DNA of 64,000 nt, from NCBI GenBank assembly GCA_029204225.1, contig CM055092.1, positions 18,436,886-18,500,885 of the forward strand, read 5' to 3'. The notes under the pieces were generated by a model. The model saw only the letters and a program-made list of their open reading frames with translations, ran no database searches and was not told the DNA's origin. This stretch comes from Diphasiastrum complanatum (taxonomy: Eukaryota > Streptophyta > Lycopodiopsida > Lycopodiales > Lycopodiaceae). Of this stretch, positions 27,839 through 32,756 are shown piece after piece. The number at the start of each line of letters is the position of its first letter. The first letter of the stretch is position 1. Made by a program: the position numbers and the translations under genes.

Positions 27839-29010
27839 CCCATGCTAGCATTAAGTGCCACACTATAACATCATCTATTGGACATGTTATATATAGCACC
27901 ATACTTCTACACCTTCCTTGAGTGATTAAAGACCAAAATTATCTTCATGCACACTATCTTGACAAAAGCATTTCTTCAAGGAATTCAACAACTAAAACTC
28001 TTCTTGATTCCTGTAGACAAATCTAGCTTATTTGGTACCGAATATAGCCTCAAAAGAAAAATCTTGAAGCTTACGTGGCATTAATATGATATATCTACTT
28101 TGAGGAGATATCTCCAAGATTTTGTCTTCTGATTATCGAGTGCTTTCTGCAAGAACAATCGAGAAGTTATTGATAAATGCACCATCAAACCATTAGCTCC
28201 CTCCAAGGACTACACTCAGCTACAAGACTTCCACCACCTACGACAATGACCCCGTGCAATAATGACAATAATAACTTTCACAAAAAAGACCAGCTGCTCT
28301 CAGAATTTGCGATACTTGTAGGCTGACCGAAAGGCAAGTAGTTTTCAGGTTTGTAATGATGGATTTTGCTAACCAACCTTTTTCACCCTTCCGATATTGA
28401 TGTTAGATGAGATTCACTAGCTTACTGAAAGTGGCATGAGGACACCATGAAAATCTACAGAAAGATAAGCTTATAAAATATATTTCCGGTTGGTTCACAA
28501 CCATTGTGGAAGAATGGTGGGACATTTATAGTCAGCAATAATGGTGATGTTTGTTCTGTATTTCTTGTTAATTTTCTTCAAGTTCATTATTTGATGATAT
28601 TCTGCTGCTGGCATTTCAAAATCTCAAAACGTAACTCTTCTGCATAAGATCATAAAAAAATGATGATGATTTTCTTCCATTCTGACCACATGCAGACTGG
28701 AAAGGTAGTCTTATGATCAGACATAACCTATGATTGTTAATGTGCATTCACATAACTACGATTCATTCCCATCAAGATACATGAAATCCAACGAGACATA
28801 TGATACCTTATCACGAACCCGAATAATTTGTATTTGATTGCTCTCTAGCTCCAATCCATATATCAACATGACACATATTGGACCAAACATAAATGATTTT
28901 TTGTTCAATGAGTAAATGGAAAAGAAGCTCACGTGCGCGATGCTAGATATCCACGATGGATCATGGAAACAATATGCTTTATTGCAAAGGTAACAAGTTC
29001 TAGACTGAAT
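27839..29010 (-). repeat. Dispersed repeat, copy C, joined to the CACTA transposase
   Basis: This is the reverse complement of copy A over about 1.17 kb. Its 90-codon frame (29,028-28,756) carries SRTCYLCNKAYCFHDPSW and ends at the same stop as in copy A. It begins exactly where the TNP2 homology stops, so it is either the 3' part of a CACTA element after an internal deletion or a separate insertion. Confidence 0.75.
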
Positions 29011-30000
29011 TATCTGTTGCAAGACCAAATCTCACATTTCTTGACTCGTTGGTAAAGCTCGGATACTCTTTGTTGATGTGTTTCCATCCAGGTGAATCTG
29101 AAGGTACCCTCATCATCCCATCCGTAGAGGTAAGGTGTGCATGCCAGTCCATAAGTTGTGCAAGAGATTTACAACGAAATAAACGTTGCAATCGTCGAAT
29201 TACTGGAAAATGTTGTAAAACTTTGCACAGAATGGTTGCCCCTTGCAAATCATCTCTATATCGAGAAGTATCACAAATGGGACATTTCTTAAGTGATTCG
29301 TACCTTCCCCGATATAAAATACAATCTTTTGGCCATGCATGATAGTGCTTGTAGTCCATCCCGATGTTAGACAACACCTTTCGTGCCTCATCTCTTGTCT
29401 CAGGCATGACATTCCCTTCTGGGAGAATTTTGTTTTTCAATAGTCTGTACATGACAAAAGAAGTCATTGTAAAAAAAAATATCTCTCGATGTCCAAATTG
29501 TAAATTTTGTTTCAAAGCAAAACTGACAAGTAGATGAAAAAAATTTTACTCAAATAATAATGTGAGGCTTTGGTCACTCCATCTATATTTGGCTTGAAGA
29601 TTTAATAGAAGTAGAGAACTCACCAAACGAGATGTCTTTGCTCCATGATACAATGCGGTCTTTGATTCTTCTCGCAAGTTTCTTTCTTCTTTAGACAAAA
29701 GTGCCTCCTCATCTTGTTCACTGTGTCTTGCTGCAATATTGTTCTTGTACATATCATCCAACATGTCTCCCATGACTTCAAATTCATCATTCATTGGAAG
29801 CTCATTTTCATCGTCGAAACTTGTTTGCGAAGAAGTAGATCTAGATGAGCTAGTTTCAGATGCATTAGTCTCTTGATGAATGCACTCATCAATTTCCATC
29901 ATCTCTTTTAAGCCTTGACGTAGATGACGAGGTATGTGGACCGTTGTATTGCATTCGTCGTCTGCGTCGACCATTACGAGGATTATTGTCTCCAACACTA
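29010..30000 (-). pseudogene. CACTA (En/Spm) transposase TNP2, broken
   Basis: Two minus-strand frames give a TNP2-family transposase. The upstream part (to 29,546) has an acidic Ser-rich N-terminus and KTSRLVSSLLLLNLQAKY. After a frameshift near 29,540 the second part (29,515-29,000) reads MPETRDEARKVL, DYKHYHAWPKDCILYRG, CPICDTSRYRDD, LQHFPVIRRLQRLF, DGMMRVPSDSPGWKHI and NVRFGLATD. TNP2 proteins bind and cut CACTA element ends. The coding sequence halts at the conserved GLATD motif, where copy C begins, so the catalytic C-terminal half is missing. SET-like coding sequence lies just upstream on the same strand. Confidence 0.85.
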
Positions 30001-30029
30001 AATGAGGATGAAGAATCCTATATATCAAA

Positions 30030-30130
30030 ATAGCAAGAAGTAGGTTGAAACAATACTTGATAAACATTTCCTCCCAATACTTGATAGATCTAAATGTTGC
30101 ATATGAATATAAATGACCTCTTAGTTTAAA
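30030..30130 (-). pseudogene. Fragment of a second SET-domain C-terminus
   Basis: The minus strand reads YSYATFRSIKYWEEMFIKYCFN, paralogous to VYATRSIRFGEELFIKYSFN at the end of the SET exon at 30.3 kb. The nucleotide match (GGTTGAAACWATACTTGATRAACA and flanks) confirms a diverged duplicate. It lies in the same open frame as the acidic N-terminus of TNP2, so the SET tail is physically joined to the transposase. Confidence 0.7.
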
Positions 30131-30339
30131 AAGTATGAACATACCAATGTATCTATTAGATAAATTTGTCTTTTCAGCTTGTTAACATTCAAGAAATCAA
30201 AGACGAATAATGCTCCTAACATTTAATCTAGATAAATGACGAATAATGCTCCTAACATTTGACATATTTAATGACACAAACCAAATACAATCAGGATGCA
30301 TGGATTATACATCTCTACATATCAACAAAATTCAAATCT

Positions 30340-31353
30340 TCACCTTTGACTTATTGTCTTTTGCAAACATTTGGGTAGAGGATGGTTGAAACTATACTTG
30401 ATGAACAGTTCCTCCCCAAACCTGATAGATCTAGTGGCATAGACCATTACATAAGTGCCCTTTACATTCCTAGTAAAATATTCTTCTTTTCCATTGGTGC
30501 GTTCTTCAAAATCACAATTCGTCACATTGCTACAATTTATATATGTAGCGATGTTTCCATGCACATCTGGATGTCCATCAATGTATGTACAATTTGCCCT
30601 TGAGATGTTGCCTCCTTGCATGCGTTGCTCCTCTAAAGAACAAGCATTTGAATTCAAGCCATATACTTGCATCCTCCATTGGTGACGACACAAATCATGC
30701 CAATCACCCCAATTGTATTGAGGTCCTGCATATGGCATCAATGTCACAACACTATTTAAAGGGACCTCAATACTACTCAATGCAAAAAGGCCCAAACCAA
30801 CCTCAGGAAGGTGTTCACTAGGCATGATCATGTAAATTCGACCCCAATGCGTAAATGGTGATCCATTTAATGGTAGTGGTGATTGGAGTGGCCAACACGA
30901 ATATCTACTTCTAATAAAAGTTTTTACTAGTGGTTGCAAGCTAGGTGGAAGAGGAAGGTCATACAAAGAACCTAGAATGTCTTTTGACACATCAACAGTG
31001 CATAGTATTTTGCAATTATCTTTCAAACTAGTCATCATACGTCCAAGACGTGTTCTCTTTTTTAAGGGGGTGGTCAAGTTTGTGGAATCCACATGGAGTA
31101 TCGTGGAGGACTCATGTGCAACATCTAGGATAGGTGTGGTTGGGTGGTAAGAACGTTCTACAGATTTGGAGACATGGATTGAATCACAAGGCATTGATGA
31201 ACTAATTATATCATGCAAGGGGTCATCATCAATAAGAGCATCATCTAGGGCCAATGATGATCCAAAATCAATATTCATGTGATTCATCCTGTCAATAATA
31301 TTCTCGATCTCTCTTGCAACTCTTTTTCTTGAAACCAACTTACGGTCCTTCTT
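30340..31353 (-). CDS. SET-domain protein, terminal exon (candidate lysine methyltransferase)
   Basis: An exon of about 338 codons opens after a splice acceptor (CTTTTGTAG at 31,361-31,354) and ends at TGA-class stop 30,340. Numbering from Met at 31,338, the first 140 residues are acidic and Ser-rich. The SET fold follows: GLG (181-183) with LFA, PYAG (202-205), YIDG (252-255), GNIATYIN (261-268), then TRSIRFGEELFIKY (302-315), matching SET motifs for S-adenosylmethionine binding and the lysine channel. The usual N-H-S is N-C-S (268-270), so activity is uncertain. No post-SET cysteine cluster follows. Its neighbours on the same strand are a TNP2 transposase remnant and a transposase-associated-like exon, suggesting it belongs to, or was captured by, a CACTA element. 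It could instead be a host gene invaded by transposons. Confidence 0.7.
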   Translation of the reverse strand, partial: KKDRKLVSRKRVAREIENIIDRMNHMNIDFGSSLALDDALIDDDPLHDIISSSMPCDSIHVSKSVERSYHPTTPILDVAHESSTILHVDSTNLTTPLKKRTRLGRMMTSLKDNCKILCTVDVSKDILGSLYDLPLPPSLQPLVKTFIRSRYSCWPLQSPLPLNGSPFTHWGRIYMIMPSEHLPEVGLGLFALSSIEVPLNSVVTLMPYAGPQYNWGDWHDLCRHQWRMQVYGLNSNACSLEEQRMQGGNISRANCTYIDGHPDVHGNIATYINCSNVTNCDFEERTNGKEEYFTRNVKGTYVMVYATRSIRFGEELFIKYSFNHPLPKCLQKTISQR

Positions 31354-31783: not shown

Positions 31784-31880
31784 CTCTCTCTCTCTCTCTC
31801 TCTCTCTCTCTCTCTCTCTCTCTCTCTCTCTCTCTCTCTCTCTCTCTCTCTCTCTCTCTCTCTCTCTCTCTCTCTCTCTC
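31784..31880. repeat. Long (CT)n microsatellite
   Basis: About 48 uninterrupted CT units. The 'SLSL' and 'RERE' open frames across it are artefacts. Confidence 0.98.
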
Positions 31881-31921
31881 GGACGTGAATGAGTCTATTA
31901 TGGGCAATTGAATATGGAAAT

Positions 31922-32096
31922 CAAGATTAACTACATCTAATCATTCTATTTGGATTTTTTTTTTTAGAAGCAAGTGAGAGATTAACTTCATCTAATCATT
32001 CTATTTGGATTTTTCCTTTTAGAAGAAAGTGAGAGATTAACTTCATCTAAATATTATATTTGGATTTTTCCTTTTAGAAGCAAGTGAGAGATTAAC
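31922..32096. repeat. 57-bp tandem repeat, three copies
   Basis: Units share GATTAACTWCATCTAA, TATTTGGATTTTT and AGAAGCAAGTGAGA. The copies differ mainly in the T-run length. Confidence 0.85.
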
Positions 32097-32210
32097 AACT
32101 ATCGTGGCACTCATCCTATCGCTCAATATCTATTGGCCAAACTATATTTGAAGTGTCTTAAGGGTCCAAGATTAAAGCATTTTCGAAAAACATTTTAAAG
32201 AGTTTACCTC

Positions 32211-32390
32211 TCATACTCTTGGATTCTCTGTGTGCACTCCATTGGCCCAAATATGATCGTTGACAATCCTCCTTGTCCGAATCCCAAGGCCTTTGCATTC
32301 TGTGCATGTATATGGTATCCTCTCATCATATTCTGTTTGAAACTGGTCCAATAATCCAATTGCAAATTGCACAAATTCTTTCAGTGTCAT
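32211..32390 (-). pseudogene. Exon resembling the transposase-associated zinc domain of CACTA elements
   Basis: The minus strand from ATG at 32,390 reads LKEFVQFAIGLL, then IPYTCTECKGLGIRTRRIV, NDHIWANGVHTENPR, reaching a possible donor GTATGAG. The pattern F-FA...C-x2-C...H-x-x-x-x-G matches the short zinc-binding region N-terminal to TNP2 in plant CACTA transposases. The second Cys pair is incomplete, so the call is cautious. It sits about 0.85 kb upstream of the SET exon on the same strand. A further candidate first exon (MSSTMSSSSDNDSSHDR, ending at a GTATAT donor) lies at about 32,720-32,660. Confidence 0.45.
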
Positions 32391-32756
32391 TCAAGTGAAA
32401 ATTGACAAATTCTAACATGTGACAAATTGTAACATGTGACAAAAATTGACAAAATAGTCTTTGTACATTTAGTGCATTTTTCTGTGACACAGCTCAATTC
32501 TTTATTCTTTCTCTAAATCACATGGAGGTACGATAATTTTCCTAAAATTCATAATTTCAATCAAATGTCATTGTAAGAATAAATTTGCAAGAAAAATTAT
32601 ACACTCATATTCAAATAACAAATAAAGTGCAATTGATGTCAATATCAATAACAATATATACCTGCTATTGCGATCATGAGATGAATCATTATCTGATGAT
32701 GATGACATCGTCGATGACATATACACACTGTAGCCAGCTACTCTATACCACATCAT

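What the first reader, a model, noticed from the sequence alone, without database searches (positions are those of the whole stretch)
28756..32756. SET-domain methyltransferase-like exon embedded with a CACTA transposase
On one strand, in order: a zinc-binding exon like the TNP2-associated domain, a 338-codon SET exon, a second SET tail fused in frame to the acidic N-terminus of a TNP2 transposase, and the TNP2 core. Seen: the domains, order and strand. Known: TNP2 transposases move CACTA elements, and some transposons carry chromatin or DNA-methylation genes (for example KDZ elements with TET/JBP in fungi, VANC in Arabidopsis). Inferred: this may be a CACTA lineage that carries its own histone methyltransferase, perhaps affecting its silencing or target choice.
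Basis: partly seen in the sequence, partly recalled or inferred. Interest (0 to 1): 0.88.

Follow-up and report, generated by a model that had tools for sequence, protein, structure and literature searches.

The report
Clubmoss CACTA transposon carrying SET gene
In a clubmoss genome, a many-copy family of cut-and-paste transposons carries, inside its own transposase gene, an exon for a SET protein (the domain type used to methylate histones), so a jumping gene may bring along its own chromatin-modifying tool.

Summary
The SET-TNP2 association is real and belongs to a transposon family. The window is from a 1.74-Gb plant genome, by inference Diphasiastrum complanatum. The SET exon (30340-31353, minus) lies between the transposase-associated (TAD) exon and the TNP2 exons. 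Genome-wide, 119 SET copies were scored. Of 20 fetched, 18 show the TNP2 segment downstream; of 20 TNP2 copies sampled systematically from 150, 16 have SET directly upstream. Elements run 5'-CACAAG...TAGTTGTG-3'; both copies whose two ends were read have 3-bp target duplications, and one encloses SET and TNP2. So: a CACTA family with an internal SET exon. The window copy is a relic: ends missing, split by a Copia element, TNP2 broken before its core. TAD, SET and TNP2 exons share phase 0, so alternative TAD-SET and TAD-TNP2 products are plausible but unseen. Activity is unproven: the NHSC motif is altered and copies drift nearly neutrally. SET-bearing Harbinger and MuDR elements are known; I found no report in CACTA.

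The parts
39967..41115 (-). 5' inner part of the CACTA element (cut off above 41115), upstream of the Copia insertion; holds the palindrome at 40400-40416
   Evidence: blastn with the 5' parts of L016 and L022: window 41115..39968 (L016) and 41115..40027 (L022) match element positions about 2116-3231 at 89-91%; palindrome
33536..39966 (-). Copia LTR retrotransposon nested in the CACTA element (not part of it); LTRs 33536-34190 and 39312-39966, target duplication GTAAT
   Evidence: LTR identity 99.5%, pol domains, target duplication, CACTA sequence on both sides
32343..33535 (-). CACTA element between the Copia insertion and the TAD exon
   Evidence: blastn to L016/L022 covers window 33513-32362; the last bases up to the Copia element are by inference
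32208..32342 (-). TAD (transposase-associated zinc) exon of TNP2; phase-0 donor AG|GTAAAC; in-frame TGA near its end in this copy
   Evidence: PF13963 E 0.0015; exon limits and stop from 17 aligned sequences
30340..31353 (-). SET exon, 337 codons plus stop; acceptor TTTTGTAG|AAG, phase 0; own TGA stop
   Evidence: PF00856 E 1.8e-7; boundaries conserved in aligned copies; 119 scored genome copies
30044..30187 (-). relic second copy of the SET 3' end (SET'), within the intron before the TNP2 exon
   Evidence: DNA score 72 vs maximum 31 in 200 shuffles; tblastn; hit in 19 of 20 fetched copies
29550..30017 (-). TNP2 exon: basic stretch plus acidic region; phase-0 acceptor ATATAG|GAT; carries an 11-bp deletion in this copy
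29013..29444 (-). next TNP2 exon after an inferred 105-bp GT-AG intron, broken at 29012 (Transposase_21 positions 1-37 of 213)
   Evidence: PF02992 E 4.2e-10; match to the Lotus TNP2 stops at 29012; intron read from the sequence
27835..29012 (-). dispersed repeat A, joined to the broken TNP2 (not part of the element)
   Evidence: 92.5% copy at 6383-7552 inverted, further pieces at 25460-26188

Best explanation
The locus is a decayed copy of a high-copy CACTA/EnSpm family in a clubmoss. Complete copies run 5'-CACAAG...TAGTTGTG-3' (9.1 and 14.7 kb in the two measured), make a 3-bp target duplication and have palindromic subterminal repeats. The family carries a SET-domain exon inside its TNP2 gene, in the intron between the TAD exon and the acidic TNP2 exon, same strand (shown). 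Most likely mechanism (inferred): one primary transcript begins at or before the TAD exon. Splicing to the TNP2 exon gives the TAD-TNP2 transposase; splicing to the SET exon, which ends in its own stop, gives a TAD-SET protein. Both acceptors match the TAD donor in phase 0. A TAD-SET protein could be brought by TAD to the element's own ends and alter local chromatin, helping the element escape or use silencing. Shown: linkage, order, strand, ends, target duplications, reading phases. Inferred: TAD-SET splicing, targeting, activity. The 0.9 below is for the SET-bearing CACTA family; I give about 0.35 to the TAD-SET mechanism.
For: SET is dispersed and multicopy: 119 scored of 3,334 first-look candidates, 92 of 119 spanning at least residues 3-335 (hand count). 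Of 20 copies chosen for open SET frames, 19 have the acidic exon and 18 the TNP2 segment downstream on the same strand, 16 the TAD exon upstream, and 9 extend past residue 600 of the Lotus TNP2. 35 of 150 scored TNP2 copies have one of the 119 scored SETs upstream within 6 kb, 33 of 35 at 776-934 bp, none misoriented, 0.03 expected by chance (both lists capped). In a systematic sample of 20 of those 150, 16 have SET just upstream. Of 40 scored 3' ends, 9 have a listed SET inside at 6.1-7.9 kb, 0 wrong. Of 40 scored 5' ends, 8 have one, 0 wrong. Target duplications AAA and CTC in the 2 copies with both ends read; the first holds SET and TNP2 (L025). TNP2 body: PF02992 E 4.2e-53 in L014, DUF4218 E 5.3e-9 in L024. 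TAD: E 3.3e-6 in L020. Phases: the TAD exon is a multiple of 3 in 15 of 17 sequences and ends at AG|GTAAA in 16 of 17; SET acceptor AG in 16 of 20; TNP2 acceptor AG in 19 of 20.
Against: Copies look like relics after a burst: pairwise dN/dS 0.80 summed over 210 pairs, 1.21 against majority codons; 48 of 119 SET copies lack stops (hand count). No RNA evidence for TAD-SET splicing; 5 of the 15 in-frame TAD exons carry a stop, window included. The NHSC-type motif is replaced. No hit in solved structures at E up to 1 with the 21-copy profile. 4 of 20 sampled TNP2 copies lack SET. Not all places are independent insertions: the 9 SET-bearing 3' ends include four C3 copies with one and the same flank and two C8 copies with another, so they stand for 5 insertions, and sampled copies L052, L056 and L057 give nearly the same matches. 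The shared exact terminal repeat is only CACAA. Both ends were read in only two copies; in L018 and L024 no 5' end, in L022 no 3' end, and in 8 more no 5' end was found in the stretches fetched. The gene content of the second complete copy (C3) was not read. L011 and L012 also hold a TNP2 piece on the opposite strand.
Confidence: 0.9

Rival explanations
1. SET is a non-functional passenger: the CACTA lineage captured a host or foreign SET gene fragment in an intron before its burst, and it has only been copied along.
For: Near-neutral drift among copies; altered catalytic motif; capture of gene fragments by CACTA elements is documented in Chenopodium (passages and section 14 of PMC8978399).
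Against: 92 of 119 scored copies span at least residues 3-335 of 337 (hand count); acceptor, phase and own stop are preserved in most aligned copies; no relative other than P0001 was found in the protein searches, which only reach proteins sharing short exact words and of fitting length, so the sequence seems to have diverged far while keeping an open SET frame. Neutral drift after a burst is also expected for a gene that worked in the master element; 7 of 210 pairs, those with dS 0.10-0.15, gave 0.43.
Confidence: 0.45
2. SET is made as a separate protein from its own promoter in the intron, unlinked to TAD, and acts in trans as a general chromatin regulator.
For: SET has its own stop; the annotated protein P0001, identical to copy L009, is a 232-aa protein starting at the methionine at position 106 of the exon.
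Against: A conserved splice acceptor and a 105-codon open stretch precede that methionine; phase matches the TAD donor.
Confidence: 0.2
3. SET is an ordinary host gene, and the TNP2 piece lies beside it by chance.
For: One SET protein from D. complanatum is annotated.
Against: 119 scored copies genome-wide, repeated linkage at fixed spacing, element ends and a target duplication around both.
Confidence: 0.01
4. SET belongs to another mobile element nested once inside an ancestral CACTA element.
For: SET lies in an intron; another dispersed repeat (31541-31828, second copy at 52481-52761) also lies in that intron.
Against: The SET exon has splice sites in phase with TNP2 and a relic second SET tail beside the TNP2 acceptor. 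I did not search specifically for other element ends round SET.
Confidence: 0.05

Closest known systems
HarbingerS and MuDR elements of Phytophthora with SET histone methyltransferase genes (Kojima and Jurka 2014, Repbase Reports; cited in PMC12730594, of which I saw passages, abstract and outline, and part 1 of 2 of the reference list)
   Same: DNA transposons carrying a SET-domain gene
   Different: Other superfamilies (Harbinger, MuDR) in oomycetes; here a CACTA/TNP2 element in a land plant with SET in the transposase gene's intron. I did not see those reports or compare sequences.
TET/JBP-bearing fungal transposons, including EnSpm families (Kojima 2025, PMC12730594, passages)
   Same: EnSpm-type elements (CAC..GTG ends, 3-bp duplications) carrying an epigenetic enzyme
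   Different: The enzyme is a DNA dioxygenase, not SET; fungi, not plants
SETMAR (PMC6326780, PMC9062482: start of abstract in search listing only)
   Same: A SET domain joined to a DNA transposon product
   Different: A domesticated primate gene with a mariner transposase; here SET is part of a multiplying element
En/Spm of maize, tnpA and tnpD from one transcript by alternative splicing (recalled, no call)
   Same: A regulator and a TNP2-type transposase from one gene; subterminal repeats
   Different: The alternative product would be TAD-SET, not TnpA
Chenopodium CACTA elements with gained domains or captured fragments (PMC8978399, passages and section 14)
   Same: A basic four-domain ORF with additions; TAD, TNP2 and DUF4218 matched here, DUF4216 only weakly
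   Different: Additions named in what I read are Peptidase_C48, Transposase_24, gene fragments and satellite arrays, with SANT and a few others mentioned from a database; 'SET domain' does not occur in its main text

Membership tests
CACTA/EnSpm transposon | TNP2-type transposase (TAD, Transposase_21, DUF4218) | tested here: met
   L014 PF02992 E 4.2e-53 (profile 1-139 of 213), L020 TAD E 3.3e-6 at 27.6 bits, just under the 27.7 cut-off; L024 DUF4218 E 5.3e-9. DUF4216 only E 0.086. The window copy holds only part
CACTA/EnSpm transposon | termini 5'-CAC...GTG-3' | tested here: met
   5' CACAAG and 3' TTGTG ends in several copies; the exact CACTA pentamer is not used
CACTA/EnSpm transposon | 3-bp target site duplication | tested here: met
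   AAA and CTC in the 2 of 2 copies for which both ends were read
CACTA/EnSpm transposon | subterminal repeats | tested here: met
   GTGGAT[AT]ATCCAC palindromes near 5' ends and, in L013 and L023, near 3' ends; no shuffled control was made for the copies (window only)
CACTA/EnSpm transposon | terminal inverted repeat of 10 bp or more (recalled) | tested here: not met
   only CACAA shared exactly between the two ends. PMC12730594 used CAC..GTG ends and 3-bp duplications to classify EnSpm, so I keep the filing
CACTA/EnSpm transposon | DDE catalytic triad | not tested
   -
SET-domain histone methyltransferase | SET domain by profile | tested here: met
   PF00856 E 1.8e-7 in the window, 2e-5 to 2.3e-6 in three copies, profile 43-104 of 105; the N-terminal part of the profile is not matched
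SET-domain histone methyltransferase | NHSCxPN motif (recalled) | tested here: not met
   majority NSSIGHPLLTNC in the 21 aligned sequences, NCSNVTNC in window and L009; GEELFIKY with tyrosine present in most
SET-domain histone methyltransferase | methyltransferase activity | not testable with these tools
   -
ATXR5/6 SET subfamily | significant sequence similarity | tested here: inconclusive
   best solved-structure hits at E 0.038-0.16 with the window SET or 2 sequences, none at E up to 1 with 21 sequences nor with L012 at E up to 10
HarbingerS | Harbinger transposase | tested here: not met
   the transposase is TNP2

The most novel reading that the evidence does not exclude
By alternative splicing of one gene, the element makes two proteins with the same TAD DNA-binding head: a TAD-TNP2 transposase and a TAD-SET chromatin modifier that is thereby aimed at the element's own ends, a self-targeting epigenetic regulator built into a plant CACTA transposon.
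Probability: 0.35. Interest if true: 0.88.

Novelty: new variant of a known kind. Interest (0 to 1): 0.75.

Why it matters
Plant transposons are held down mainly through DNA and histone methylation. A CACTA family that spread to high copy with its own SET exon is a natural system for asking whether an element can write or block chromatin marks on itself. It extends SET capture, stated in PMC12730594 for Harbinger and MuDR elements of an oomycete, to CACTA elements and land plants, and the phase-matched exons make a shared targeting domain directly testable by RNA and chromatin profiling in a living clubmoss.

Tried and rejected
Terminal repeats inside the window: none convincing, later explained because the window copy lacks both ends. 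Extension of SET/SET' homology past the SET stop: not above shuffles (165 of 500 reach it), dropped. ATXR5/6 origin: weak, lost with more copies; L012 hit only a PhoU-like protein outside the SET part (E 0.0011), taken as chance. Structure prediction: pLDDT 28.6 and 29.0, useless, no fold search made. SET relatives in prokaryote and viral contigs: none by one pattern scan each. NCBIfam: one sub-threshold bacterial effector model, E 0.016-0.028, taken as nothing more than a shared SET stretch or chance. Fused SET-TNP2 gene models of 401-1276 aa: none at E up to 10. Selection: near neutral overall, no purifying signal on the changes shared by window and L009 (12 N, 4 S), so no support for domestication of the window group; lower values in 7 of 210 pairs (0.43) and for L016 and L022 against majority codons (0.41, 0.53) were not followed up. 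Paired ends: no 5' end found in L018, L024 or 8 further copies, no 3' end in L022. Papers: ten searches of the open PMC library; the listings showed no SET in a CACTA/EnSpm element (one search gave mostly unrelated papers); (species and CACTA genomics) led me to PMC8978399 but to nothing on SET.
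Full report
WHAT IS IN THE WINDOW. On the minus strand lie, in order: a TAD-type zinc exon (32208-32342), a 337-codon SET exon (30340-31353), a relic second SET tail (30044-30187), and two TNP2 exons (29550-30017 and 29013-29444, inferred GT-AG intron between, read). Pfam gives SET E 1.8e-7 and Transposase_21 E 4.2e-10 but only positions 1-37 of 213. The match to a full TNP2 of Lotus (P0002) ends at 29012, where a dispersed repeat with copies at 6383-7552 and 25460-26188 begins. 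I found no TNP2 core in the window. The TAD exon scores E 0.0015 here and 3.3e-6 in copy L020.

ORGANISM. The only relative in the protein database at E up to 1e-3 (1,496 candidates, lengths limited by the tool) is a 232-aa protein of Diphasiastrum complanatum, 96% identical. It is 100% identical to copy L009 on the same contig as the window. That contig is 101,634,788 bases, close to the 101,640,312 recorded for the protein's contig. I infer that the window is from that species.

SET IS A REPEAT GENE. The own-genome search scored 119 SET copies out of 3,334 first-look candidates, 81-100% identical; by hand count 92 of 119 span at least residues 3-335 and 48 of 119 have no stop inside. Only the best candidates are scored, so real numbers may be higher; on the other hand some pairs with equal scores on a long and a short contig may be duplicated contigs.

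SET AND TNP2 TRAVEL TOGETHER. I fetched 20 of the 119 copies, chosen from stop-free rows, so this set is biased towards open SET frames. On the SET strand, 16 of 20 show the TAD exon upstream, 19 of 20 the acidic TNP2 exon downstream, 18 of 20 the TNP2 segment, and 9 of 20 TNP2 beyond residue 600 of P0002; L011 and L012 also hold an opposite-strand TNP2 piece. Starting from TNP2 instead (150 scored of 4,905 candidates), 35 of 150 have one of the 119 scored SETs upstream within 6 kb, 33 of these at 776-934 bp, none misoriented, against 0.03 expected. Because both lists are capped I also read the DNA 0.7-1.5 kb upstream of every seventh TNP2 copy, 20 in all: 16 of 20 hold SET sequence on the same strand. 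The misses are L041 (TAD exon present, SET part gone), L045, L048 and L050. L052, L056 and L057 give nearly the same matches and are probably one insertion duplicated.

ENDS AND TARGET DUPLICATIONS. Comparing copies gave a sharp 3' end ...TAGTTGTG and a 5' end CACAAGAACACATGTAG, with palindromic GTGGAT[AT]ATCCAC repeats near 5' ends and in some copies near 3' ends. Of 40 scored 3' ends, 9 have a listed SET upstream on the same strand at 6.1-7.9 kb, 0 wrong; four of the nine (C3) share one flank and two (C8) another, so they stand for five insertions. Of 40 scored 5' ends, 8 have a listed SET downstream on the same strand within 20 kb, 0 wrong. For TNP2 the 5'-end comparison gave 3 right and 1 wrong; the wrong one is a TNP2 that also pairs rightly with another 5' end 17 kb away. 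Both flanks were read for two copies: C9:43483644-43498330 (14.7 kb, the L025 element with SET and TNP2) is flanked by AAA/AAA, and C3:49913565-49922648 (9.1 kb, gene content not read) by CTC/CTC. For L018, L024, L022 and 8 further copies the second end was not found in what I fetched. These are CACTA-type ends and duplications, although they read CACAA rather than CACTA and the exact terminal repeat is short.

THE WINDOW COPY IS A RELIC. Element sequence occupies 41115-39967 and 33535-29013; between them sits a Copia element (33536-39966, LTRs 99.5% identical, target duplication GTAAT). Both element ends are missing, which explains the empty end search. The TAD exon carries a stop shared with L009, and the SET motif region has a four-residue gap shared with L009. 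The in-frame join of SET tail and acidic exon depends on an 11-bp deletion found in the window and L009 only, of 20 aligned sequences. TNP2 hits that include the last two residues past the break lie at C1 18.04, 18.32, 18.37, 18.47 (the window), 70.45 and 81.86 Mb, so the broken copy seems to have been copied by segmental duplication.

GENE STRUCTURE. The TAD exon is a multiple of three in 15 of the 17 sequences in which the script found it (5 of these 15 hold a stop) and ends at AG|GTAAA in 16 of 17; the SET acceptor AG is kept in 16 of 20 assessable sequences (L027 starts further in); the TNP2 acceptor AG in 19 of 20. Reading from each junction, TAD, SET and TNP2 are all phase 0; SET ends in its own stop. 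In many single copies the TNP2 frame has a premature stop. The simplest model is one gene with two mutually exclusive 3' parts. This parallels maize En/Spm, where tnpA and tnpD share a transcript (recalled). No RNA was available.

FUNCTION OF SET. The fold assignment rests on Pfam. The GEELFIKY stretch with the expected tyrosine is present in most copies, but the NHSCxPN motif (recalled) reads NSSIGHPLLTNC in the majority. Similarity to ATXR5/6 is weak and disappears with 21 sequences. Copies drift near neutrally (pairwise dN/dS 0.80 summed over 210 pairs; 1.21 against majority codons with an assumed transition weight), as expected after a burst; 7 of the 210 pairs, at dS 0.10-0.15, gave 0.43, and L016 and L022 gave 0.41 and 0.53. 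Selection on the working element could not be tested. Activity is open.

KNOWN CONTEXT. Kojima 2025 (PMC12730594; passages, abstract and outline, part 1 of 2 of the references) states that SET methyltransferase genes occur in HarbingerS and MuDR elements of Phytophthora, and describes TET-bearing EnSpm families in fungi. A Chenopodium study (PMC8978399; passages and section 14) describes CACTA elements with other gained domains and does not contain the words SET domain. In the listings of eight full-text searches I saw no SET in a CACTA element. Hence: new variant of a known kind.

Noticed in passing
window 33536-39966: Young Copia element (LTRs 99.5% identical, one 1322-aa frame, target duplication GTAAT) nested in the CACTA relic.
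   Followed up: yes
window 47562-47916 (-) and 62846-63200 (+): Two 92%-identical copies of another TAD-like exon with in-frame stops (PF13963 E about 0.1); no second full SET found by tblastn in the window. Perhaps a second TNP2 lineage.
   Followed up: partly
C1 at 18.04, 18.32, 18.37, 18.47, 70.45 and 81.86 Mb: The window's broken TNP2 junction recurs at five other places, so six with the window, four of them within 0.5 Mb: the dead SET-CACTA copy seems to have spread by segmental duplication.
   Followed up: partly
window 30044-30187: A relic second SET 3' end beside the TNP2 acceptor is also hit in 19 of 20 fetched copies, so the SET exon was probably once duplicated inside the element before the burst.
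   Followed up: partly
window 11452-12445 and 46558-47552: Inverted 95%-identical pieces that read like Ty3/Gypsy pol by eye.
   Followed up: no
window 27103-27837 and 43863-44598: A 735-bp dispersed repeat (94%) with internal repeat units, next to repeat A.
   Followed up: no
window 23883-25274 (+): Expansin-like exons (recognised by eye, no domain search) followed at 25415-26188 by pieces of repeat A.
   Followed up: no
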